DNA from: Clostridia bacterium
Lineage (GTDB): Bacteria > Bacillota > Clostridia > Oscillospirales > Acutalibacteraceae
Assembly: GCA_024404015.1 (NCBI GenBank)
Contig: JAKSQQ010000003.1
Span: 1-42,688, forward strand
Direction: 5' to 3'
DNA length: 42,688 nt
Both the position numbers and the translations under genes were made by a program. Each line of letters opens with the position of its first letter. Positions within the stretch are counted from its first letter, which is position 1. The notes under the pieces are model-generated. The model was not told the DNA's origin, did not search any database, and worked only from the letters and a program-made list of their open reading frames with translations. Below, piece after piece: positions 14,362 to 36,195 of the stretch.

Positions 14362-15885
14362 TTATTTGAATCTGAAAAAACCGGGAATCGTAACGGTGAA
14401 AAATTCAATTATCATCTTTACGAAGTTGAGAAGTGAGGGTGCTTCCTTAAAGCGTTCAGCCATTGTCTGAATACCCTTTACGGGTGTCAGAGTTTCGGCG
14501 TGGTCATCGTTTTTGAGGAACTGAGGATATTTTTCATTTGAAAATACGGTTAACTGTTCATCACTCTGAAGAAGCGTATTATAAAATTCATCAATGGCTT
14601 TCTGTCCGTTGCAATGAAGCCAGCCCTTATTGAACCAGGTGCAGTCGGGAAGAGCGCAGGTTGACGCATCAATGCACTTATCGGGAGACACGTATTTTTT
14701 ATCTTCAAGAGATGAAATATATTCATCTTCAAGAACGCTTCCGTCGTCGGCGCAGGTAGCACCCAGGGAGGCGTATTTTGTATCTACGGTACCGTCTGAC
14801 GTATTGTGCCATGCGGTAACAAGAGGAGTTCTCTGAACGTCATATCCGCAGAATATGTATACTCTTACGCCGTCAGCCATTGCCTTTTGAAGATTATCCG
14901 CAACATTTGACTGGGCAGTTCTGTAACGGGCAATCTGTTCATAAAGACCGCTTGATTTATCAATTTTCATGAAGGAAAGAGCGCCTTCATAATATTCGGC
15001 GGGAACGAAAGCCCAGATGCCGGGCATTGAGCCGAAAATCGGGATAAGACATTCGTCAAATACTCTGTCTCCCAAATTTTCAACAAGCTTATTACCGAGA
15101 TTTATGATTCCGTCCCACACACCCGTAACACGGAACGCTTCTGTAAGGGAATAGAGAAGCGCCTGAAGGAAGTCGCCGCCGTCAAGATAGGGAAGCGCAT
15201 CCTGAGCATACTGTCGGAGTGAGTCTGCATTAAGCTCAACAAGTCCGTTGAAAAGCTCACCTGCAACGGCAGTACCCCAAAGGGGACAGCACTGACAAAT
15301 TATTTTTTCAACATCGGACCGGCCGTATTCTTCAAGATATGCGGCAAGAACTACACCGCCCATTGAGGATGCTTTCAGCTGAACCTTACTGTGTTTTGTA
15401 AGGCACTTTACCTGCTGAATCACCTCATTGAGGCGTTCCGCATGAATATAAGGATCAAGACGGAAATCATAATTGAAATAAAACGAATGATTTATTCCGT
15501 GATTGCCGTCTGAGGGAACGTTAAGACCCTCAACGGTTACATTACTCTTTGAATTGCCGTCGTTATCAAGAGCAAGGTCTCCGAAGCTGTCATTGACGAA
15601 TTTAATGAGAGCATCACCGAATTCATCGGGATTATTCAACAGGGCACCTTTGACAAGTCCGCCCAGCTCATTTTTCGCATTTGAAAGAAAAAAGCCCGTA
15701 TCGGTTTTCCAGAGTTTCTGTTCATTTTCGGTACCTGCATCTCTGACAATATCCGCACAGCCGAGAGGTCCTACGTAAATGAGGGGAGAAAAACCGCAGC
15801 TGCATTCCTCTTCAGCAGCAAGGGCGGGAAGTACAATCATGGAAACAAGCACCAATGAAAGTAATAAGGAAATAACCTTTTTCAT
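14362..15885 (-). CDS. Secreted LCAT-like alpha/beta hydrolase, paralogue 1 (Ser nucleophile)
   Basis: A 507-residue exported protein. The N-terminus is a standard signal peptide with cleavage expected after PALA (about residue 23). The mature part has the pattern of lecithin:cholesterol acyltransferase-like alpha/beta hydrolases: PLIYVGPLGC near residue 35, a FNYDFRLDP strand, and a nucleophile elbow KASSMGG with Ser174 in a loosened GxSxG box. A late segment KYVSPDKCIDAST...TWFNKGWLHC probably supplies the catalytic His. The C-terminus is hydrophobic and aromatic and may hold it at the membrane. Two diverged relatives lie at 20495 and 32802. Substrate unknown; lipids or acylated glycans are possible. 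It has its own promoter downstream of the sialate O-acetylesterase. Confidence 0.78.
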   Translation of the reverse strand: MKKVISLLLSLVLVSMIVLPALAAEEECSCGFSPLIYVGPLGCADIVRDAGTENEQKLWKTDTGFFLSNAKNELGGLVKGALLNNPDEFGDALIKFVNDSFGDLALDNDGNSKSNVTVEGLNVPSDGNHGINHSFYFNYDFRLDPYIHAERLNEVIQQVKCLTKHSKVQLKASSMGGVVLAAYLEEYGRSDVEKIICQCCPLWGTAVAGELFNGLVELNADSLRQYAQDALPYLDGGDFLQALLYSLTEAFRVTGVWDGIINLGNKLVENLGDRVFDECLIPIFGSMPGIWAFVPAEYYEGALSFMKIDKSSGLYEQIARYRTAQSNVADNLQKAMADGVRVYIFCGYDVQRTPLVTAWHNTSDGTVDTKYASLGATCADDGSVLEDEYISSLEDKKYVSPDKCIDASTCALPDCTWFNKGWLHCNGQKAIDEFYNTLLQSDEQLTVFSNEKYPQFLKNDDHAETLTPVKGIQTMAERFKEAPSLLNFVKMIIEFFTVTIPGFFRFK

Positions 15886-20494: not shown

Positions 20495-22375
20495 TTACCA
20501 ATAAGTGGGATTCAGAATATCTCTGAAGCCCTTTGCGCCGAATACTTTATAAACGGCATCGTCTGCTTTCTTAAGGAAACCGCCGTCACTTTCCCCGGAA
20601 GGAGTTTTTGCTTCTTTCTTGCCGAGTTCTACAAGTACATTATAAAGAGCATCAAAGACTTTGTTATCTTCTTCCCAGTTGGCTGTACCGCTGTCTCTTA
20701 CGGCAATTGCATCGTCATACGCCTTTTGCTGATCTGCGGTAAGTGTGCCGCCCTTGGCAATATAATCATCAATTTCCTTCAGATCGTTCTTTGCACTTCT
20801 GAAATATCTCTGATCATTAAACTTGGCATAAGCCGTATCGCTATTATCCGAAACAACGCCGCAGGCAAGGTCAAGAGCAAGACGAAGGGCAATATTATTA
20901 TGCTGAAGCTCGTGTCTCTGATTCTTGAAAAGCCATACGTGAGTGGGGAAATAGCAGGTTGAAATATCTACGCTTCCGTCGGGTGTAAGAACGGCATTGG
21001 CACCGGGCTGGCTTACCTGAGTACCGAGAGCACTCTTAACTATTGTAGCACCGGTTGCGGTTGAAGAAATCTGGATGATTTCATCGGAGTTTGTAGTAGT
21101 CGTAGTACCCATAAATTTGAAAAATTCATAGTCGCTGTCTTCGGAGCCGCCGAATTCAAGACCGTAACCGGCAATATAGTAGAATTCAACACCGTACTCG
21201 CTGTTAAGCATTTTCAGACGCTCTTCAAGTCCGGTCTGACACTCATAGTATTTGTCAGTCATATCCATGATGTACTTAAGGTCTTCATTGGGAGCAAGAT
21301 ACTTTTCTCTGATTGCCTGATATCTTTCTGCGGGAATAAGGGCAAGGAGAGAGGGAGTCTTGAGAACGAGCTCGTCAACAAGTCCGTCAACGATTTCATC
21401 AATAATGCTTCTGAGTGTCTTCTTGGGGAAGAGTCTGAGAACGAAGTTTACAATATAACCCCAGGGCTCGCCGATAAGACCTGAAACAAGTCCGTGATAA
21501 AGCTTGTCAGGAGCATCTGCGGCAAAGTTGTGCTCAATAAGGTCGGCAAATACGTCACTGCCGTTCCATGCACCTACAATGCTGACAACCTTTGCTACCT
21601 GTGCCTTTGTGCCGTAATCCTGAAGATATGCGGAAACAACGGAAGCACCCATGCTCATGGGAACAAGAACGACCTTGTCTTTGCCGGTCTGTTTAAGAAC
21701 AACGTCATTGATGAAGGTGTCAAGGTCTTTGGCGTTATTATACGTAAATGAGAATGCGGAATAGTTGAAGCAGTAAATCATATCTTCGCCTACACCGGAA
21801 ATAACATCCTCGCAGGGAATTGAACGGTAGAAATTCTCTCTCTGCTCTTCAGTCATTCCGGCAACGGAGCAATCTGCTCTGGGGGTGATGACGTTTTCGG
21901 GAAGATTACCCTCTTTATCAATTATATTGTATCTGAAAAGAGTTTTAACTACGTAATTTACTGCGCTTCTCGGAATAAGATTAATACCTATCATAGAAGC
22001 AAGAAGGCCGACTGCCACACGGATAATCGCAAAAATAGTGGCGGGCTCTTTGAATGCGAAGCTGAAATTATTGCAGAAAAGGTTCCATCTTGCAGTAGCA
22101 TTGTCAGTTTCTCTGACGTTACTGCCGTCGGCGTTTTTACCTGCGGTACCGTTCTTTACCTTTTCAAGGGTTTCGTAATAACCGGCAACATCGTCTTTAT
22201 TCTCATAAAAATAACTGTAAGACTGACCGATGCCCGTTACGAAAACTATGGGATATTCTGCATCACTTTTGCCTGACGCAGGAGTCTGTTCCTCTGCAAA
22301 TGCTGCAACTGTAAAAACGGAAAGCAGCATGGAGAGAACAAGAATAACGGATATAACTCTCTTGAAATTTTTCAT
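20495..22375 (-). CDS. Secreted LCAT-like alpha/beta hydrolase, paralogue 2 (Ser nucleophile)
   Basis: A 626-residue exported protein when started at ATG 22373-22375, which has GGAAGGAG at good distance and opens straight into a signal peptide (MKNFKRVISVILVLSMLLSV, cleavage after AFA). The frame extends 16 codons upstream without support. The mature part has PIVFVTGIGQS, a CFNYSAFSFTY strand, and a nucleophile elbow VPMSMGAS with Ser241, where the first Gly of GxSxG is replaced by Pro-Met. A segment VLTPDGSVDISTCYFP...KNQRHE matches the catalytic-His region of the other two paralogues. Insertions make it about 110 residues longer than them. It is predicted to be extracellular or wall-associated; the substrate is unknown. 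It is monocistronic between two terminators. Confidence 0.75.
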   Translation of the reverse strand: MKNFKRVISVILVLSMLLSVFTVAAFAEEQTPASGKSDAEYPIVFVTGIGQSYSYFYENKDDVAGYYETLEKVKNGTAGKNADGSNVRETDNATARWNLFCNNFSFAFKEPATIFAIIRVAVGLLASMIGINLIPRSAVNYVVKTLFRYNIIDKEGNLPENVITPRADCSVAGMTEEQRENFYRSIPCEDVISGVGEDMIYCFNYSAFSFTYNNAKDLDTFINDVVLKQTGKDKVVLVPMSMGASVVSAYLQDYGTKAQVAKVVSIVGAWNGSDVFADLIEHNFAADAPDKLYHGLVSGLIGEPWGYIVNFVLRLFPKKTLRSIIDEIVDGLVDELVLKTPSLLALIPAERYQAIREKYLAPNEDLKYIMDMTDKYYECQTGLEERLKMLNSEYGVEFYYIAGYGLEFGGSEDSDYEFFKFMGTTTTTNSDEIIQISSTATGATIVKSALGTQVSQPGANAVLTPDGSVDISTCYFPTHVWLFKNQRHELQHNNIALRLALDLACGVVSDNSDTAYAKFNDQRYFRSAKNDLKEIDDYIAKGGTLTADQQKAYDDAIAVRDSGTANWEEDNKVFDALYNVLVELGKKEAKTPSGESDGGFLKKADDAVYKVFGAKGFRDILNPTYW

Positions 22376-22405
22376 ATTTAATCTCCTTCCGAAAATTATG
22401 CTTTT

Positions 22406-22434
22406 ATTATAAAGCAAAAACAAACAATTATCAA
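22406..22434 (-). promoter_or_regulatory. Sigma-A promoter of LCAT-like paralogue 2
   Basis: Minus strand -35 TTGATA (22429-22434) and -10 TATAAT (22406-22411), 17-bp spacer, about 30 bp before the ATG at 22375. Its position also favours that start over one at 22423, which would lie inside the promoter. Confidence 0.7.
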
Positions 22435-23125: not shown

Positions 23126-25489
23126 TTATGCTCTGAGAGCCACGCCTATTACGGAAAGATTGGCAAGGATTGCATCAATATTCTTCTGAACCTCTTCCAT
23201 TTCAAGAGTTCTGTCCATGGCAACGAAATTGAAGCGGATGGTAATACTTCTGATACCGAGACGCTCAAAGGTATCAATTACCTTTACGCTCTCAAGCTCG
23301 GCGATATTTTCCTTTTTCCAGCAATTTTCAAGCTCTTCAAATCTGACGTCGTTACCGAGAACGAGGGAAAGATCATAATAAATTGACTGCATTTCGCTGG
23401 CTTCCTTGAAAGCGATGGATCTTGCACCAACGGTATTGAAGCTGTCCATATCAAATTCAACGGCTACCACAGCACCGGTCTTATCAAATTTAGTCCTGTT
23501 AGAGGGATGAAGAGTGCAGATTTTACCGAATTCAATGCCGTCAACGGAAATGATTGAGGTGTTTTTGGGATGCTGCCACGCTTTGACCTCAGCTGCCTTC
23601 TTATAGACGGGATTAACCTGCTTGATTTCGTTTACTATGCAGTTGATGATTTCAAGTGCCTTGAAATAAAGCTTCCTTTCGTCGCCGTTCTTATTGAAAA
23701 GAACGAAGCCGAGATGCTTCCTCTCATTTGCGTATCCGTTTTCTTTTGTGCCTTCAACTACTCTGCCGATTTCAAACAGACCATAGCTGTCGCTGAAGTC
23801 CTTATTCTCACTTGCCATTACAAGGAGAGTGGGAATCATTGAATTACGAAGAACACCGTTTTCGGAATTTTCAATATTAAGTACCTTGACATTATCCTCA
23901 ACATCGATACCCAGCTTCTTATATTTTCTGCCGTCACACCAGATATAGGAATTGACCTCGTGAAGAGCGTATTTCTTAACAAGGATATCCTTTACTTCTT
24001 CGTCCTCAAGACGGCTGTAATCGTTGGGAACGGGCTTAAGGGGCATCTTGGTTGTGGTAATCATAAAGTTATCATAACCGTAAATTCTTGTGATTTCTTC
24101 AATAATATCGGCTTTAATCGTAACGTCCTTTGTCGCTCTCCATGAGGGAACGTCAACCACAAATTCGCCGTTATTATAGTTCACACCGAAGCCGAGAGAT
24201 GAAAGAGTCTTGATTATTCTTTCATCGCTGATGTCAATACCCGTGTATCTGTCAACATACTGCTTGTTGAAGGAAAGCTGAATGTGGGGATACTTCTTTG
24301 TATAGCAATCATTGAGCTTTGAAGCTACCTTTGCACCGGGGTCAACAGATTTAACTATTTCAACAAATCTGCCCACTGCATCCATTGTAAGCTCAGGGTC
24401 AAGCATCTTTTCGTATCTTGCGGATGCATCGGTTCTGTGACCGAGTCTTGATGAAGATTTACGTACGCTTACACCGTCAAAGCAGGCACTTTCAAGAACC
24501 ACAGCGCCGGTATCCTCAACGATTTCGCTGTCAAGTCCGCCCATGATGCCTGCAATGGCAACGGGAGTATCGCCGTTACAAATCATAAGGGTGTCTTCAT
24601 CTATATCTCTCTCCACACCGTCAAGGGTAGTGAATTTCATCTTTTCCTTCGGAGTGGTAACAACGATATTATCAATTGAATTTGCATTAAATGCGTGAGT
24701 GGGCTGACCAATCTCAAGCATAATATAATTTGTTACGTCTGCAAGAAGATTGATACCTCTCATACCGCAGTAGAAAAGTCTTATCTGCATTTCAAGGGGA
24801 CTTTCATTAACGGTAATGTTATCCATCTTAAGAGCGGAATATCTGTAAACAAGGTCCTCTCTGCCTACGGTTACGGGGACCTGATAGTCGCCGTCATAGG
24901 AAATATCACCCAGCTTAAGGGGTTTCAATTCTCTGCCTGTAAGTGCAGCGAACTCTCTGGCTATACCGTAATGACCCCAAAGGTCGGGACGGTTGGTGAG
25001 GGATTTATTATCAACCTCAAAAATAATATCGTCAATGGGATAAACATCCTTGATATTTGTGCCGTTAGCGGCATCTGTTTTAAGGTCTATGATACCGCTG
25101 TGATCGTCGCTGATACCCAGTTCCTTTGCGGAACAGCACATGCCCTCCGAATCATAGCCGGCAATTTTGGTAATTCCGATTTCGCCTGCAGGTACTCTTG
25201 CGGGAGCTACTGCAACAGCGGTCTTCATACCGAGTCTTACATTAGGTGCGCCGCAGACAATATTAACCTGCTTTGAACCGATATCAACCTTCAGAAGATG
25301 AAGCTTCTTTGAATCGGGATGATTTTCAATTGAAACGATTTCACCTACAAAAACGTTCTGAACATCTTCGCCCTTTACATAGATATCCTCAACCTCAGCG
25401 GTTGCAAGGGTAAACTGATTGATGAGCTTCTTGACGTCAAGGCCTTCAAGGTCAACATAATCTTTAATCCAGTTAATTGATACAAACAT
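23126..25489 (-). CDS. pheT: Phenylalanine-tRNA ligase beta subunit
   Basis: A 787-residue beta subunit of the (alpha-beta)2 PheRS, which attaches phenylalanine to tRNA and edits misacylated Tyr. Domains in order: tRNA-binding EMAP-like domain (about 40-150), B3/B4 editing domain (about 200-400), B5 domain (about 405-475), a catalytic-like core, and the FDX-ACB anticodon-binding domain at about 695-787. Length is normal. It starts five bases after pheS stops, the standard pheST arrangement, and is under the upstream T-box. Confidence 0.98.
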   Translation of the reverse strand: MFVSINWIKDYVDLEGLDVKKLINQFTLATAEVEDIYVKGEDVQNVFVGEIVSIENHPDSKKLHLLKVDIGSKQVNIVCGAPNVRLGMKTAVAVAPARVPAGEIGITKIAGYDSEGMCCSAKELGISDDHSGIIDLKTDAANGTNIKDVYPIDDIIFEVDNKSLTNRPDLWGHYGIAREFAALTGRELKPLKLGDISYDGDYQVPVTVGREDLVYRYSALKMDNITVNESPLEMQIRLFYCGMRGINLLADVTNYIMLEIGQPTHAFNANSIDNIVVTTPKEKMKFTTLDGVERDIDEDTLMICNGDTPVAIAGIMGGLDSEIVEDTGAVVLESACFDGVSVRKSSSRLGHRTDASARYEKMLDPELTMDAVGRFVEIVKSVDPGAKVASKLNDCYTKKYPHIQLSFNKQYVDRYTGIDISDERIIKTLSSLGFGVNYNNGEFVVDVPSWRATKDVTIKADIIEEITRIYGYDNFMITTTKMPLKPVPNDYSRLEDEEVKDILVKKYALHEVNSYIWCDGRKYKKLGIDVEDNVKVLNIENSENGVLRNSMIPTLLVMASENKDFSDSYGLFEIGRVVEGTKENGYANERKHLGFVLFNKNGDERKLYFKALEIINCIVNEIKQVNPVYKKAAEVKAWQHPKNTSIISVDGIEFGKICTLHPSNRTKFDKTGAVVAVEFDMDSFNTVGARSIAFKEASEMQSIYYDLSLVLGNDVRFEELENCWKKENIAELESVKVIDTFERLGIRSITIRFNFVAMDRTLEMEEVQKNIDAILANLSVIGVALRA

Positions 25490-26599: not shown

Positions 26600-26823
26600 A
26601 TAATCCCTCACTGTCAAAGACAATGAGGGACGAATAATATCCGCGGTACCACCCTGCGTTCCCGTAAAACGGGCTCTCTCGGTTATAACGTGACCGACGT
26701 CAGCGACTAAACTATTCACCGCTGCTGCTCACGGGCGAACATTCAATTAAACGCATACAGCCCTTTCACAGCATCGGGGCCTCTCTGGAGTATGCCGGAT
26801 AACCTACTTTCCCGGTCTTAGCA
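26600..26823 (-). promoter_or_regulatory. T-box riboswitch (tRNA-Phe) upstream of pheST
   Basis: Read on the minus strand, this leader contains the T-box core GGTGGTACCGCGGA (around 26640-26655) and then a terminator hairpin TCCCTCATTGTC/GACAGTGAGGGA (about 26612-26638) with a T run just before pheS. Uncharged tRNA binding to the T-box bulge would form the antiterminator and switch on pheST. A Stem I with an AG-rich bulge region lies at 26740-26820. The candidate specifier codon is UUC at 26737-26739, matching phenylalanine. A weak -10 (TACAAT) lies just upstream. Confidence 0.93.
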
Positions 26824-26833
26824 TTGTAAAGAT

Positions 26834-30794: not shown

Positions 30795-32138
30795 TTAACC
30801 AAATGCCTTGATGATTGAACCGATTGAAAGCTTGATAAGACTTACGATAGTGCTAAGGAAGTCAATGTTAGCCATAAGGGGCTTAAAATTGTCAACCCAG
30901 AAGGATTTCCAGTCAAGTGACTTAATCTTATCCCACCAGCTCATCTTGGGCTGGGGCTTTTCAACCTGCTGTGACTTGATATTATAAGCGCCTTCGGAAT
31001 AGTTTGTACCTGCTTTAACGACGATGATATACGTACCTGCCTCTCTGGCGCTGAGGTCAAACTCTGCATTCTGTGCCTTTGAGCAGATTGTGGTCTGATA
31101 GGATGCGGTCATATCAGCATTGTAAAGAGTAACTTCCCAAGTAACACTGCTGTCATTTCTTGTGTCGTTTGCACAGGAAATGATAATCTTCTGATCCTGA
31201 TCGGATGTTACCTTGAAAACGTCAATGTCTTCGGGTGAAGAAAGAGCGGCATATTTTTCGGTACCGATTGTAATAACGTTTGCCTTTGCAAGAACATCGT
31301 TATATTCGGACTCTCTCTGAAGGTCAAGCTTTGAACGAAGCTTGAACATATAAGCGCCTGCTCCGCCGTCTACACCTTCAACCTTGAGATAATAGTCGCC
31401 TGAGGGGATACCCATATCTGCGCTGGTCTTGTCAGCAACATCAGACGTAACCTTGAATGAGCCGATAACCTTATCGGTTGCCTTCTGAATAACGGATACT
31501 TTGAAGTCGGATTTAGCGCTGTTGTAGAACTTAACCTGAAGATAACCTTCAGGAACAACAACGCTGAAAGCGAAGAAATCAACGTCGCCGGCAGCGATTG
31601 TACCGCCGATTTCAAGTGAATCCTTTATTGTATCCTTGATAGCTTCTGCCTTAACCCTGGTAGCGGTAGCAGCAGTATCGTTGGGCTCGATTTCATAGTT
31701 TTCCTTTGTGATTATATCAAAGAAAACCATGTAAGTTTCGGCAACGTATTCCTGAGCTGCATTAACAGCGGAAACCTTGATGTAGTATGAGCCGACTGCG
31801 GTGCTGAATTCTTCGGAGGAAACTTCGCCTGCCTTGTTTACATTGAAAGAGGCAACAAGCTTGGATTCGTCCTTATCGTTACCGATAACGTCAACCTTGT
31901 ACTCTGTGGTTGCGCTTGTGGAAACAAGTCTTACCTTGGCTTTACCTGCATTGGCAACGGTTGTCTTGAAATAGTCAACATCCGAAGCGGTTGCAAGACT
32001 GCCCTGTGCGCTTGTGGTGAATGCAAGAGCGGTATCGATAGTGTCGTAATCTTCACCATCTGCAAATGCAACACACATTGTGCCCATAACGAGCATGGAA
32101 ATAAGAAGTACGGAAATAATGGCTTTAAATTTTTTCAT
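30795..32138 (-). CDS. Secreted protein with three PPC-type beta repeats and an amphipathic tail
   Basis: A 447-residue exported protein with a signal peptide cleaved near residue 26 (CVAFA). Three repeats of the bacterial pre-peptidase C-terminal kind follow, about 30-140, 150-270 and 275-390. Each has an acidic opening (EPNDTAATA, ESEYND), a DVDYF/DVDFF/DIDVF strand and a GxYYxKV-like end. No enzyme domain is attached, although PPC domains usually hang on peptidases. The last 50 residues (MSWWDKIKSLDWKSFW...) are aromatic and amphipathic, then hydrophobic, and may bind membrane. It is a candidate surface-binding or scaffold protein. It has a near-consensus promoter and terminator of its own. 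Confidence 0.82.
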   Translation of the reverse strand: MKKFKAIISVLLISMLVMGTMCVAFADGEDYDTIDTALAFTTSAQGSLATASDVDYFKTTVANAGKAKVRLVSTSATTEYKVDVIGNDKDESKLVASFNVNKAGEVSSEEFSTAVGSYYIKVSAVNAAQEYVAETYMVFFDIITKENYEIEPNDTAATATRVKAEAIKDTIKDSLEIGGTIAAGDVDFFAFSVVVPEGYLQVKFYNSAKSDFKVSVIQKATDKVIGSFKVTSDVADKTSADMGIPSGDYYLKVEGVDGGAGAYMFKLRSKLDLQRESEYNDVLAKANVITIGTEKYAALSSPEDIDVFKVTSDQDQKIIISCANDTRNDSSVTWEVTLYNADMTASYQTTICSKAQNAEFDLSAREAGTYIIVVKAGTNYSEGAYNIKSQQVEKPQPKMSWWDKIKSLDWKSFWVDNFKPLMANIDFLSTIVSLIKLSIGSIIKAFG

Positions 32139-32174: not shown

Positions 32175-32203
32175 ATTTTATCATATAACAAAATAATTGT
32201 CAA
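32175..32203 (-). promoter_or_regulatory. Strong sigma-A promoter of the PPC-repeat gene
   Basis: Minus strand TTGACA (32198-32203), 17-bp spacer, TAAAAT (32175-32180); then AGGGAGG before the ATG. The combination predicts strong expression. Confidence 0.78.
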
Positions 32204-32231: not shown

Positions 32232-32786
32232 TTAATGAACTGAGGCGGAATAAATCTGCCAGTCAAAGCAATCTGAATTGAGAATCCTGCCGCAGTATTC
32301 GCATTTCGCGATTCTGTTGATATCCGAGGGTGCTCCGCAATAGGGACAGTTACGGGAACTCATTTTTTGCGGTTTTTCGCTCTGAAGACCCGATTCTCTG
32401 CAGAATACGACCTGATTATCAATAAACTGCTCGGATTTGTTTCCTCTGATATACGCCTTTGTGTCGGGATTGATGATATATCGGACTTCACGGGTACGTA
32501 GAGTGGCATAAACATAGTCAAAGCCGTCACGCTGCTCATATCCCGAAACGGAAGCATCGAGCACGGTAATCCTTTCCGTATAAAGGAAAGCACCCTTATC
32601 AAGGGAAGTTCTCATCTCATCAACAAGACCGTTATACAAATCAGGAAATACGTATGCTTCTATTTCCTCCGGCTTTCTGTCGCTGAAGCAAACTCTGAAG
32701 CGATAAAAGATATTCGTAATTTTCTGAAGGAAGAAGCTTTCGCTGAAGCCCTTATCAATATTTTTATATTCTGCGATGGGATTCAA
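32232..32786 (-). CDS. TIM44-like domain protein with C-terminal zinc ribbon
   Basis: A 184-residue cytosolic protein when started at TTG 32784-32786, which has AAGAGGTG six bases upstream; a GTG at 32795 would sit inside that ribosome site. Residues 20-130 look like a TIM44-like/NTF2-type domain (an FFLQKITNIFYRF helix, then PDLYNGL and ITVLDASVSGY strands). Residues 145-170 form a zinc ribbon with Cys147, Cys150, Cys162 and Cys165. The Tim44-like fold often binds lipids or partner proteins. The gene starts 15 bp after LCAT-like paralogue 3 stops, in the GH3 operon, so it may be an accessory factor for that pair. The TIM44 assignment is moderate; the zinc ribbon is clear. Confidence 0.7.
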   Translation of the reverse strand: MNPIAEYKNIDKGFSESFFLQKITNIFYRFRVCFSDRKPEEIEAYVFPDLYNGLVDEMRTSLDKGAFLYTERITVLDASVSGYEQRDGFDYVYATLRTREVRYIINPDTKAYIRGNKSEQFIDNQVVFCRESGLQSEKPQKMSSRNCPYCGAPSDINRIAKCEYCGRILNSDCFDWQIYSASVH

Positions 32787-32801
32787 GGATATCACCTCTT
32801 A

Positions 32802-34397
32802 TCAGTTATATCTGGTGAAGGTAAATATACGCACGAAGAAGCAGAAAACATCGTAAAAGATTTTGAAGAAAGGTTTCAGCTTATACCAGAACGAATTTGT
32901 TGTTTCATACCATGCGTCTATGGCTGTTGAATGCTCCGCTTTTTCGGGAACAATAGAATGTGTTTCCTCATCATAGAAAAGATACTGAGGATAATCGGGA
33001 TCGGAAAAAACCGTAAAGTTTTCCTCATATACAATCTTTTCAATCAAGGCATTAACACAGGTATCAAAATTTGCGTGCTCAAGGTTATTGATATACCACG
33101 TTGTATCCGGCATAAGTCCGGTTGATGCATCTATTCGCTTATCGGGAGAAACATATTTATCCTTTCCCTCTGCGGCAAGAGCCGAGATATAGGAATCATC
33201 AAGAACGGTTTTATAACCCGATGTGGTGGCACCGAAGGATGAATCGCTGACAAAGCATACTTTGTCGGAAAGCTCGTTTGAACGGGGTGAAACGGGAGTG
33301 CACTGATTACCGTACTTGACTATGTCAAATACCTGACCGCCGTTTTTTATAAATTCGTCAATTATTTTTTTCTGGCGAAGATAGATATTATTGTGATAGT
33401 TATCTATCTTTTCAATCATGCCCGCATATTCGTCTTCCATACCGCCGAAAACAACTTTTTTGGCTTCGTCAAAATATCTGTCATCGACCATACTCCAGTA
33501 GCCCGGGAACGAGCCGAGAGTTTTTCTCATAGTGCGTGGAATGATATCCATATAAATCTGACTGTAAACGTTATTGACTGCCCAGCAGGCGAAATCAAGA
33601 CCGTAAACATCGCTGAGGGTTACAAGTATTTCACGGAGACTTTCTTCCGTAAGAGTCAGTTCATCGGTAATGGGAATTTCAATATCCATGTCAAGACAAT
33701 ACATGAATCTTGCCACCGCATCCGGGTCAACGACAAGATTACCGCTGAACGCCTCGCCTACAGGGCTTGCACCGTAATTTGCACCCGCATAGAAAACAAC
33801 TTTCTTGAGATGAGGGTCCTTGTAAACATCCATGTAGGTAAGGGCAAGATTACAGCCCATACATCTGGATACTATGGCATAGTCTTCGCTGCCGGTAACC
33901 TGTTGAACATTCTCAACGTAAGAGCGAAGCTTCGCCATATTGTCATAGGGGTCAAGGCGCCAGTCATAATGGAATTCAAACTGTGAAACGCCTCTGAAAT
34001 TACGGTAAAAATAGTTTACGGTACCTATATCATCGTTAAATTCCGCATACGAGCCATCGGAAACATTGCCGTTATTATCAAGCATAAGGGGCTCGTACAT
34101 AGAGGTGAATATTTCGTATATTTTATCGTCAAATTCGCTCCAATCCTGAGTAAGGATTGCGTTTATGATTATTTCTTTATTCTCTGTCAGATAGCCGAGA
34201 ATAGTATCGGTGCTTGTATCAACGGGATAGAGAACGGTCTTAGAGCCGTCTTCATTCGGTCTGGATATGGGGCAACCGTAACCCCCAACATAGATTATGG
34301 GAAGGTTATCCGCAGAAGCAATCACCGATGCAGCGTTCACAGCTATCACTCCGGAGAGAATAGCGATACACAATAAAACGGATATTACTTTTTTCAT
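32802..34397 (-). CDS. Secreted LCAT-like alpha/beta hydrolase, paralogue 3, with Cys in the nucleophile position
   Basis: A 531-residue exported protein with a signal peptide (MKKVISVLLCIAILSGVIAV, cleaved near 29). The family pattern is clear: LPIIYVGGYGCP near 33, FHYDWRLDPYDN near 143, and KYVSPDKRIDAST...TWYINNLEHAN late in the protein for the catalytic His. The nucleophile elbow reads VSRCMGCN instead of GxSxG, so Cys179 (codon TGT, 33861-33863) stands where paralogues 1 and 2 have Ser. Cys nucleophiles are known in the alpha/beta fold, for example in PHA synthases. It follows the GH3-type enzyme by nine bases and precedes the TIM44-like gene. Substrate unknown; acyl transfer is as possible as hydrolysis. 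Confidence 0.76.
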   Translation of the reverse strand: MKKVISVLLCIAILSGVIAVNAASVIASADNLPIIYVGGYGCPISRPNEDGSKTVLYPVDTSTDTILGYLTENKEIIINAILTQDWSEFDDKIYEIFTSMYEPLMLDNNGNVSDGSYAEFNDDIGTVNYFYRNFRGVSQFEFHYDWRLDPYDNMAKLRSYVENVQQVTGSEDYAIVSRCMGCNLALTYMDVYKDPHLKKVVFYAGANYGASPVGEAFSGNLVVDPDAVARFMYCLDMDIEIPITDELTLTEESLREILVTLSDVYGLDFACWAVNNVYSQIYMDIIPRTMRKTLGSFPGYWSMVDDRYFDEAKKVVFGGMEDEYAGMIEKIDNYHNNIYLRQKKIIDEFIKNGGQVFDIVKYGNQCTPVSPRSNELSDKVCFVSDSSFGATTSGYKTVLDDSYISALAAEGKDKYVSPDKRIDASTGLMPDTTWYINNLEHANFDTCVNALIEKIVYEENFTVFSDPDYPQYLFYDEETHSIVPEKAEHSTAIDAWYETTNSFWYKLKPFFKIFYDVFCFFVRIFTFTRYN

Positions 34398-34406
34398 GAT
34401 AACTCC

Positions 34407-36134
34407 TTATTTGCCGAGAACGTAATCCACAACCTCCGATTTGGTATCAACCTGGGAGAAGAAGAATTTTTCTCTCTCGGCATTGTTTATAACGGTTACG
34501 GGCTTGATCTGATTGAGAACTACGCCCTTTCCCGCAAGGTATTTATTGAAATTAACATAAGCGTTTTCTTTCAAGAAAAGCACTTCGGGTTTATTGAGCA
34601 TACCCCAGCGTCTGTACTTATAGTACTTTTCATTGATATCATCCATTGCACCGTCAAGAGCGGTGATGAGCTTCTGTCTTGTTTCCTCATCGGGAACGCC
34701 GCCTCTGATTTCACAGAGCATGGTATATCTGGGGGGCTTAGTGGTAAAATCGGGATAGAAGCTGAAGCCCTGATATTCAACGCCCACTTCATTCGCAATG
34801 CGCTCGGCGGCGGCATCAATCATATCGGTAGTCGTTTTTTCATTGGCAACGTTCATTGACAGATTCTGTCTGAACATCAGCTGAACTTCCGGTGTATTAT
34901 TATACATCCTGGTTACCTTTATGACATCCTCCATTTTGTATCTGTAAAGACCGGAGAAATTGGAAACGATAACCTCGTAATATTTGCCTACCTCAAGCTG
35001 ATTGATAAGCAGGGGCTTAACGCTGTCGTCTGCCTTTTCCTCATCCTCAGAAAGAGGAAGAAACTCAAAGAAGACGGTGTAAGGGGTAAGAACATAGTCA
35101 TCCGCATCAAGCTCCGTGGGTGTGGCAAAGAAGCCCTCGGCGGCGGCGTAACCCATATTGTGAATGGGAACGTTCGGTCCGATGTTCTTGCGAAGCTTAT
35201 CAACGTAAACGGAAAGATTTGAGCCCATCATGCCGTATGCCCACTGAAGATTGGGCCAGATACGGGGAGCAATGGGGTCTTCAAAGCCCTTTTCAAATTC
35301 CTTTCTGAGCTCTGCGGCTCTTTCGGGATTGGGCTTGAATTTCTTTTCGTATTTCTTTCTGAATTCATCGGTACAATCAATATTCGGATTGATTATACCC
35401 TTTTCAATATCGTCGCAGAGCATTTCCCAGTTCTCTTCAAGGTAGTCAAACATCTGGGTAAGAAGGGTAACTACGATTGAACCGAGATAGCTTACCTTCT
35501 TATTTTCAAGGCAAAAACGCAGATGAAGATAAGAGGTATCATATTTATCGTTAAGGTCGGGGAAAAGGAGAGGAAGAGGTGAAGTGCAGAAGAAGGGAAG
35601 AATGGGCTTGAGCATTCTCAGAGGTATCTGAGCGGCGCCGTTACTCATCTTACCGTCGGGAGTCTTGTGACCGGAAAGATTAAGGGCAAGAGGACCAACC
35701 TGATTGCACATTCTGATGCCTTTCTTTTTCATATGATGAAAGGCCGTGGCAACGGCAACAGAAAAGCCGATGCACTGCATCTTCCACAGGTCATTCGCGC
35801 CCTTGGGAAGCATTTTGGGCTTACCTACGGAGCCGGATGAGGAAGCATAGCGGAAATTGATTCCGTTGAACATAAGACGCTTTTCACCGTTATTCATCAT
35901 TCTGTCAACGTACGGCTCGTAATCGGCATAGGTTGACAGAGGAACAATCTTCTGATAGTCCTCAATGGAGTGAACATCCTTGAGATTAAGCTTCTTTCCG
36001 AGTTCACAGGATTTATTTCTTCTGATTATTTTTTTAAGAACACTCTTCTGTGCTTTAAGAGGATCTTTTGTAGTATGATTTATCTGGGCTCTGGATACAT
36101 CACCGAGAAAAACTCCGAAATCTGAAAAAGCCAT
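34407..36134 (-). CDS. GH3 auxin-responsive-type acyl-adenylating enzyme
   Basis: A 575-residue protein when started at ATG 36132-36134, which has GGAGGT six bases upstream; the frame extends ten codons further without a ribosome site. It matches the GH3 branch of the adenylate-forming superfamily: phosphate loop YASSSGSVGKPK near 98, the adenine-binding GYAAAEGFF motif near 335, the SGLYRYKMEDVIKV motif near 410, and a C-terminal swivel domain ending with NFNKYLAGKG. Plant GH3 enzymes adenylate auxin or jasmonate and join it to amino acids. Bacterial members presumably form acyl-amide bonds, with unknown substrates. No signal peptide: cytosolic. It heads a three-gene operon with a secreted hydrolase and a TIM44-like protein. 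Confidence 0.88.
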   Translation of the reverse strand: MAFSDFGVFLGDVSRAQINHTTKDPLKAQKSVLKKIIRRNKSCELGKKLNLKDVHSIEDYQKIVPLSTYADYEPYVDRMMNNGEKRLMFNGINFRYASSSGSVGKPKMLPKGANDLWKMQCIGFSVAVATAFHHMKKKGIRMCNQVGPLALNLSGHKTPDGKMSNGAAQIPLRMLKPILPFFCTSPLPLLFPDLNDKYDTSYLHLRFCLENKKVSYLGSIVVTLLTQMFDYLEENWEMLCDDIEKGIINPNIDCTDEFRKKYEKKFKPNPERAAELRKEFEKGFEDPIAPRIWPNLQWAYGMMGSNLSVYVDKLRKNIGPNVPIHNMGYAAAEGFFATPTELDADDYVLTPYTVFFEFLPLSEDEEKADDSVKPLLINQLEVGKYYEVIVSNFSGLYRYKMEDVIKVTRMYNNTPEVQLMFRQNLSMNVANEKTTTDMIDAAAERIANEVGVEYQGFSFYPDFTTKPPRYTMLCEIRGGVPDEETRQKLITALDGAMDDINEKYYKYRRWGMLNKPEVLFLKENAYVNFNKYLAGKGVVLNQIKPVTVINNAEREKFFFSQVDTKSEVVDYVLGK

Positions 36135-36166
36135 AGATATACCTCCGATAATAATTTTGTACAATT

Positions 36167-36195
36167 ATTATATTATAATATAGGCATATTGTCAA
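36167..36195 (-). promoter_or_regulatory. Consensus sigma-A promoter of the GH3-LCAT-TIM44-like operon
   Basis: Minus strand TTGACA (36190-36195), 17-bp spacer, TATAAT (36167-36172): a perfect consensus, about 33 bp before the GH3 ATG. No operator-like repeat was seen, so the operon is probably well expressed in ordinary growth. Confidence 0.82.

What the first reader, a model, noticed from the sequence alone, without database searches (positions are those of the whole stretch)
32232..36195. Candidate new pathway: GH3-type adenylating enzyme, Cys-type secreted hydrolase and TIM44-like zinc-ribbon protein in one operon
A perfect consensus promoter leads three closely spaced genes. GH3 enzymes activate carboxylic acids for amide formation; the next product is exported and may transfer or cleave acyl groups; the third has a fold often tied to lipid binding. 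Together they could make, export and remodel an acyl-amino acid or lipoamide. No described system with this composition came to mind.
Basis: inference. Interest (0 to 1): 0.72.

Follow-up and report, generated by a model that had tools for sequence, protein, structure and literature searches.

The report
Paired GH3 and cysteine-LCAT lipid genes
In a family of uncultured gut and rumen Clostridia, a gene related to plant hormone-conjugating (GH3) enzymes and a gene for a predicted secreted, LCAT-shaped enzyme with a cysteine in place of the usual serine occur together in most genomes that have either, often side by side; together they likely make an amino-acid lipid and would then attach a second fatty chain to it outside the cell.

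Summary
In detail: a 12-of-12 promoter leads three minus-strand genes 9 and 6 nt apart: GH3, a secreted-type alpha/beta hydrolase with Cys at the nucleophile position, and a Tim44-like zinc-ribbon protein. The conserved unit is the first two. A Cys-type LCAT-like gene directly follows GH3 (57% identity or more) in 16 of 27 genus copies and 32 of 60 named copies (overlapping sets); the order is reversed in three other genomes. Among 37 genus genomes, 24 have both, 3 GH3 only, 1 Cys type only, 9 neither; in the rest of the family sample 14 of 14 GH3 genomes have a Cys type, and none was found in 222 others (10 with weak hits unread). Seven independent tree contrasts: 6-7 agree, none oppose. Cys is invariant in the 120 nearest relatives; others, two in this window, have Ser. 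The model matches lysosomal phospholipase A2 and LCAT, which transfer acyl chains from phospholipids. The short Tim44 gene follows in 6 of 37 genomes only. Closest precedent: planctomycete OlsH/OlsI (ornithine lipid, 2025); this GH3 scores 64 bits against OlsH's cut-off of 620. Likely product: an N-acyl amino acid or amine lipid, O-acylated outside. Substrates are untested.

The parts
36167..36195 (-). sigma-70 type promoter, TTGACA-17-TATAAT
   Evidence: 12 of 12; 3 perfect in window against 0.033 expected; 12/12 site also in orthologues L041, L045, L046, L047 (4 of 25)
34407..36134 (-). GH3-type acyl-acid amido synthetase, 575 aa
   Evidence: PF03321 245 bits, PF23571 87, PF23572 64; JAR1 5ech E 8.4e-52. 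In 121 aligned rows S98-G104, P106, K107, A331-G334, G395-Y399, D403 and K544 are invariant, K105 and A330 120 of 121, E402 112 of 121
32802..34397 (-). predicted secreted, C-terminally anchored LCAT-fold enzyme with Cys nucleophile (triad C179-D423-H441 by conservation), likely acyltransferase
33861..33863 (-). codon of Cys179 (nucleophile position)
   Evidence: read; alignments
32232..32786 (-). Tim44-like domain plus C-terminal zinc ribbon (listed from GTG 32795; TTG 32786 likelier); same operon here, but not a conserved member of the pair
   Evidence: PF04280 E 1e-10; distribution; alignment A2

Best explanation
The core of the operon is a conserved two-gene module, a GH3-type enzyme and a predicted secreted LCAT-fold enzyme with Cys in place of the nucleophilic Ser, which likely makes an N-acyl amino acid or N-acyl amine lipid in the cytoplasm and would then O-acylate it on the outer face of the membrane. 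Step 1 (inferred from GH3 chemistry and intact motifs): GH3 activates a free fatty acid with ATP and joins it to an amino group. Step 2 (inferred; no transporter is in the operon): the product reaches the outer leaflet. Step 3 (inferred from fold, conserved Cys-Asp-His triad, signal and tail): the exported enzyme, held by its hydrophobic C-terminal helix, takes an acyl chain from a phospholipid onto Cys179 as a thioester and passes it to a hydroxyl of the GH3 product, as LPLA2 does with N-acetyl-sphingosine. Acyl-CoA and acyl-ACP are not expected outside the cell, so phospholipid is the likely donor. Shown here: adjacency, co-occurrence, invariance of Cys in the nearest relatives, predicted fold. 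Not shown: any substrate or product.
For: Adjacency: 15 of 26 fetched genus GH3 copies at 57% identity or more (16 of 27 with the window) and 32 of 60 named copies have a Cys-type frame directly downstream on the same strand; order LCAT-LCAT-GH3 in G621 and G443, LCAT-GH3 in G618, GH3-LCAT-GH3 in G504; 0 of 26 copies under 57% in those two sets have one. Several different surroundings. Co-occurrence: genus 24/3/1/9, Fisher p 1.6e-5; rest of the family sample 14 of 14 against none found in 222; on a pheT tree 7 independent GH3 contrasts, 6-7 in the same direction, 0 opposed, p 0.016-0.031; taken from the Cys side 8 contrasts, 6 same, 0 opposed, 2 without difference, p 0.031. Nucleophile: 120 of 120 Cys; 2 changes on a tree of 126 family members. 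Fold: LPLA2/LCAT stand above other lipases. Precedent: OlsH plus alpha/beta-hydrolase OlsI make ornithine lipid (PMC12493201). LPLA2 transacylates N-acetyl-sphingosine (PMC6027918); PHA synthases carry GxCxG and a Cys-Asp-His triad (PMC3227634).
Against: No substrate is known. Some genomes, most of them labelled rumen, hold 20-31 A1 matches, more than a single second step needs. Five family members there have Ser (GRSIG). GH3 genomes in which no Cys type was found among the hits read: G005, G012, G018, G640 (best hit read of 13) and G654 (best hit read of 21, a GRS Ser). Cys type without GH3: G008. The identity cut was set after seeing the data and is fuzzy: G616 (GH3 47%) has Ser as best hit, whereas G649-G651 (46-47%) have Cys. 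9 of 18 GH3-bearing genomes of the family sample do not keep the genes adjacent. Some Cys alpha/beta hydrolases hydrolyse (dienelactone hydrolase, recalled); the nearest NCBIfam match, weak, is a depolymerase (PhaZ7, 16.7 of 450 bits). I know of no hydroxylated N-acyl lipid from these bacteria.
Confidence: 0.42

Rival explanations
1. The LCAT-like enzyme is a secreted lipase that frees fatty acids from plant or host lipids, and GH3 conjugates incoming long-chain fatty acids to amino acids or amines to detoxify or store them. The order of steps is the reverse of the best explanation.
For: OlsH uses free fatty acids, not acyl-CoA or ACP (PMC12493201). Expansion to 20-31 A1 matches per genome in several, mostly rumen-labelled, genomes looks like a digestive repertoire. 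Many record titles name rumen, omasum, caecum, colon, rectum or faeces.
Against: The Ser-type paralogues would do for lipolysis, yet it is the Cys type that tracks GH3. Cys in GxCxG is the mark of an acyltransferase, PHA synthase, and the fold neighbours LPLA2 and LCAT transacylate.
Confidence: 0.25
2. The pair is a clostridial version of OlsH/OlsI proper: GH3 makes lyso-ornithine lipid and the hydrolase-fold partner makes ornithine lipid.
For: Same two enzyme superfamilies in one operon; the precedent is biochemical.
Against: GH3 scores 64.1 bits against the OlsH equivalog cut-off of 620; no methyltransferase among the three genes; the OlsH paper itself expects other amino acids for homologues outside planctomycetes.
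Confidence: 0.12
3. GH3 makes a released signal (N-acyl amine or amino acid) and the LCAT-like enzyme processes or degrades it outside the cell.
For: A GH3 clade of the same genus (about 43% identical) is followed by a DUF819 protein and a PLP decarboxylase in 5 of 5 loci L089-L093, as an acyl-amine pathway would be; gut Clostridia make fatty acid amides (PMC13142362 abstract).
Against: That clade has no Cys-LCAT beside it, so its context does not carry over; the fold is that of ester transacylases, not amidases.
Confidence: 0.11
4. The neighbourhood is positional: the genes share a site and a promoter but no pathway.
For: In the rpmA-PGI sublineage the order is inherited as a block with the Tim44-like gene and a secreted 447-aa protein.
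Against: The pair recurs in other surroundings and in reversed order and co-occurs when unlinked.
Confidence: 0.05

Closest known systems
OlsH/OlsI ornithine-lipid pathway of Singulisphaera acidiphila (PMC12493201, J Biol Chem 2025)
   Same: GH3-type enzyme plus alpha/beta-hydrolase-superfamily protein in one operon; GH3 forms an amide, the partner O-acylates.
   Different: This GH3 is far below the OlsH model's cut-off; the partner here is of predicted secreted, LCAT-fold, Cys type; no OlsG methyltransferase gene; Clostridia, not planctomycetes. OlsI's own sequence was not at hand to compare.
Lysosomal phospholipase A2 (PLA2G15) and LCAT
   Same: Best fold matches by Foldseek and VIA-align; 7 of 56 relatives match Pfam LCAT; extracytoplasmic.
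   Different: Cys instead of Ser nucleophile; 10-12% identity over the aligned part; the window protein itself has no Pfam LCAT match.
PHA synthase (PhaC)
   Same: Cys in the lipase box and a Cys-Asp-His triad (passage in PMC3227634).
   Different: No Pfam or NCBIfam PhaC match for the window protein; secreted-type, LCAT-like fold; no PHA gene among the three.
Plant GH3 amido synthetases (JAR1, GH3.12, GH3.15)
   Same: Near full-length homology, E 8.4e-52 to JAR1, motifs aligned.
   Different: Bacterial, linked to a lipid-type enzyme; acyl substrate likely a fatty acid (inferred).
OaaC fatty-acid-amide pathway of Coprococcus eutactus (PMC13142362, abstract seen)
   Same: Gut Clostridia making fatty acid amides.
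   Different: Uses a condensation domain and an acyl carrier protein; neither is among the three genes here.

Membership tests
GH3 acyl-acid amido synthetase | N-terminal, central and C-terminal GH3 domains over Pfam cut-offs | tested here: met
GH3 acyl-acid amido synthetase | ATP-binding motifs and C-terminal Lys intact | tested here: met
   alignment to JAR1; core residues invariant or nearly so in 121 rows (which residues make up the motifs is partly recalled)
GH3 acyl-acid amido synthetase | ATP-dependent amide formation | not testable with these tools
   needs an enzyme assay
OlsH (NF052613) | score over the equivalog cut-off of 620 bits | tested here: not met
   64.1 bits
OlsH/OlsI operon | alpha/beta-hydrolase gene in the same operon | tested here: met
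OlsH/OlsI operon | partner is an OlsI orthologue | not tested
LCAT / LPLA2 | LCAT/LPLA2 fold | tested here: met
LCAT / LPLA2 | Pfam PF02450 match of the window protein | tested here: not met
   no family at E 0.01 or better for the window protein; 7 of 56 relatives match
LCAT / LPLA2 | serine nucleophile | tested here: not met
   Cys179
LCAT / LPLA2 | acyl transfer from phospholipid | not testable with these tools
   needs an enzyme assay
PHA synthase | Cys in the lipase box | tested here: met
   commonest family motif GRCxG; S-R-C-M-G in the window
PHA synthase | PhaC family match by sequence | tested here: not met
Tim44-like | PF04280 over cut-off | tested here: met
   42.3 bits, cut-off 29.6

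The most novel reading that the evidence does not exclude
Gut and rumen Clostridia carry an undescribed two-step membrane-lipid pathway: a GH3 enzyme builds an N-acyl amino-acid or amine lipid without CoA or carrier protein, and a new family of exported Cys-nucleophile LCAT-fold transacylases esterifies it on the outer leaflet with phospholipid as donor; in some, mostly rumen, lineages this transacylase family has radiated to dozens of copies per genome.
Probability: 0.33. Interest if true: 0.78.

Novelty: new variant of a known kind. Interest (0 to 1): 0.6.

Why it matters
It turns a vague neighbourhood into a testable two-gene pathway in uncultured gut and rumen bacteria. If the Cys-type enzymes are transacylases, they would be a Cys-nucleophile branch of the LCAT/LPLA2 fold, working outside the cell without activated donors. 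It would extend the one GH3 lipid pathway that I found described (planctomycetes) to Clostridia, and the natural Ser/Cys split between paralogues in one genome gives a direct test of what the Cys is for.

Tried and rejected
Tim44-like protein as a module member: not supported outside one sublineage. A short form follows GH3-LCAT in G000, G019, G027 and G029, follows GH3 directly in G003 and (contig end) G012, and lies nearby in G021. Most other matches are in longer open frames elsewhere in the genome, but in G009 and G027 a distant paralogue (23-24%) lies just upstream of GH3.

OlsH identity: rejected on score. Greedy longest-ORF gene calls hid some LCAT genes under antisense ORFs; adjacency was recounted from stop-to-stop frames and an HMM, so distances are frame distances. 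A score threshold as proxy for Cys was dropped after one search showed Ser members (GRSIG) at 458-493 bits; residues were read instead. In the tree I labelled L232 (GH3-LCAT-GH3) as unlinked by mistake; the change counts for linkage are therefore approximate. An empty-site test between sister species G011 (both genes) and G002 (neither) failed: the flank was not found in G002, 80% complete. Structure searches that list no PhaC are not evidence that the fold differs.

Papers: searches gave search listings (87: none). Of PMC12493201 I read the outline and abstract, part 1 of 3 of Results, the section on distribution, part 1 of 2 of the Discussion and passages; of PMC3227634 and PMC6027918 passages; of PMC13142362 the abstract. 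A clostridial GH3-LCAT system was not found in searches, which cover open-licence PMC papers only.

Full report
Observation. The three genes, their order and the promoter are as described, on the minus strand. Two starts need correcting: GH3 begins at ATG 36134 and the Tim44-like gene more likely at TTG 32786. Gaps are 9 and 6 nt. The promoter is more than chance: 3 perfect sites in the window against a mean of 0.033 in 300 first-order Markov sequences; 4 of 25 genus orthologues with a full 5' end have a 12/12 site upstream of GH3, 6 an 11/12 site, 15 only 9-10/12. The scan shows no terminator-like site between the Tim44-like gene and the next gene, which has a promoter-like site of its own at 32203..32175.

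GH3. All three GH3 Pfam domains score over cut-off, and residues 17-544 align with JAR1 (E 8.4e-52). Core motif residues and Lys544 are invariant or nearly so in the window protein and the 120 relatives listed. It is not an OlsH equivalog (64 of 620 bits). The genus holds three kinds of GH3: this one (63% identity or more among genus matches), one at 42-44% and one at 28-32%.

Cys against Ser. Cys is present in 120 of the 120 relatives listed (the search found 711). The window's two other LCAT-like proteins, at 14362-15885 and 20495-22423, have Ser. Among the hits read, all at 349 bits or more to A1 have Cys, and below that all have Ser but one (Cys 344, highest Ser 347). In one search five members have Ser in a GRSIG motif at 458-493 bits. 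A tree of 126 members needs 2 changes of the nucleophile: the main Ser group stands apart from the Cys group, and the five GRSIG rows sit inside the latter. GH3-linked members cluster (8 changes of the label, shuffled mean 31; one linked row, L232, was mislabelled).

Adjacency, from stop-to-stop frames. Of 26 fetched genus loci with GH3 at 57% or more, 15 have a Cys-type frame directly downstream on the same strand (16 of 27 with the window); 3 of the 11 misses end within 400 nt. In named GTDB contigs it is 32 of 60 copies, 5 misses at contig ends. The two sets share many assemblies and are not independent. Of copies under 57% in these sets, 0 of 26 have one. In the family sample, by coordinates, 9 of 18 genomes with GH3 at 49% or more have the genes together: downstream in G000, G022, G417, G578, G623 and G504 (GH3-LCAT-GH3), upstream in G621, G443 and, 524 nt away, G618. 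Neighbours outside the pair differ.

Co-occurrence. Genus, 37 genomes: GH3 and Cys type 24; GH3 only 3 (G005, G012, G018; 2 of 6, 2 of 10 and 4 of 12 LCAT hits read, all Ser); Cys only 1 (G008); neither 9 (best hit read, except G036, whose weak hit was not read and is counted as none). Fisher p 1.6e-5. Family sample, the 236 genomes not in the genus set: 14 of 14 with GH3 at 49% or more have a Cys type; of the 222 others 36 had any A1 match, of which I read the best hit in 26, all Ser, and did not read 10; Fisher p 7.8e-23, inflated by relatedness. The cut of 49% was set after seeing the data; at 46%, G616 (47%, best hit Ser) joins and the count is 14 of 15. Order sample, 394 genomes: the 3 with GH3 at 61% or more are the 3 with an A1 hit over 450 bits (three candidates scored per genome). 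Named genomes: 25 of the 68 loci, mostly those without an adjacent LCAT gene or with GH3 under 50%, lie in 23 genomes; of 21 with GH3 at 46% or more, 19 show a Cys type among the hits read (G635 in a partial frame); G640 and G654 show Ser in the one hit read; the 2 with only a 42-43% GH3 show Ser. At least four of these genomes have the coordinates of members of the family sample (G638/G245, G639/G482, G648/G586, G652/G520).

To allow for relatedness I built a pheT tree from 60 chosen genomes (the 37 of the genus, 14 family positives and 9 family negatives picked because they had LCAT hits); 10 dropped out for lack of a usable pheT, leaving 50. Seven independent GH3 contrasts on supported branches: 6-7 in the same direction, 0 opposed, p 0.016-0.031; from the Cys side 8 contrasts: 6 same, 0 opposed, 2 without difference. 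pheT has two very different types and some long branches, so this is not a clean species tree.

Mechanism. The published analogue is OlsH/OlsI: GH3 joins ornithine to a free fatty acid with ATP, and an alpha/beta-hydrolase protein adds the second chain (PMC12493201). [quoted passage not shown] PHA synthases are a known case of Cys in this box in an acyltransferase (PMC3227634). Together these give the model in Best explanation. Adjacency, co-occurrence, invariance and predicted fold are shown; substrates, donor, flipping and the direction of the pathway are inferred.

The Tim44-like gene is in the operon here, but its short form follows GH3 directly or through LCAT in only 6 of 37 genus genomes; in G003 it follows GH3 with no LCAT between. 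A distant paralogue just upstream of GH3 in G009 and G027 keeps a weak link open. Tim44-like domains bind membranes elsewhere (recalled).

Verdict. A real, co-occurring module, a new variant of the GH3 plus alpha/beta-hydrolase kind, with a Cys-type LCAT-fold partner that I did not find described in searches.

Noticed in passing
L089, L090, L091, L092, L093: A second GH3 clade (about 43% identical) is followed by a DUF819 membrane protein and a PLP-dependent decarboxylase in 5 of 5 loci (Pfam run on L089 only): a candidate acyl-amine (fatty amide) pathway that uses GH3 instead of a condensation domain.
   Followed up: partly
L094, L095: GH3 of about 43% identity lies with condensation-domain or PapA-like proteins and a Lip_C lipase (L094 scanned; L095 judged by gene sizes).
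   Followed up: no
L097, L098, L100: A third GH3 clade (about 30%), one copy in the window's own genome (G000:C41), is followed by a protein with a signal-like N-terminus; the L098 one matches GDSL lipase/acylhydrolase, so GH3 again sits beside a lipid-type hydrolase fold.
   Followed up: partly
G632-G637, G641-G643, G645, G646: Genomes with GH3 at 65-67%, mostly rumen-labelled, hold 20-31 A1 matches each, some in tandem; one branch of the family there has Ser in a GRSIG motif.
   Followed up: partly
window 14362-15885 and 20495-22423: Two more predicted secreted LCAT-like proteins with Ser nucleophiles; natural controls for the Cys type.
   Followed up: partly
L009/L016 region: G009:C299 and G027:C6:30403-30945: A distant Tim44-like paralogue (23-24% identity, longer frame) lies just upstream of GH3 in G009 and G027 (L016, L043).
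   Followed up: no
window 23126-25489: pheT comes in two very different types within the family (about 53-85% against 30-38% identity to the window's), which suggests transfer or replacement.
   Followed up: no
window 26623-26828: T-box leader, 111 bits, upstream of the pheS-pheT genes (gene names recalled from sequence).
   Followed up: no
window 30795-32138: Predicted secreted 447-aa protein with a hydrophobic C-terminal tail and a strong terminator-like site behind it; relatives follow the Tim44-like gene in G019, G027 and G003.
   Followed up: no
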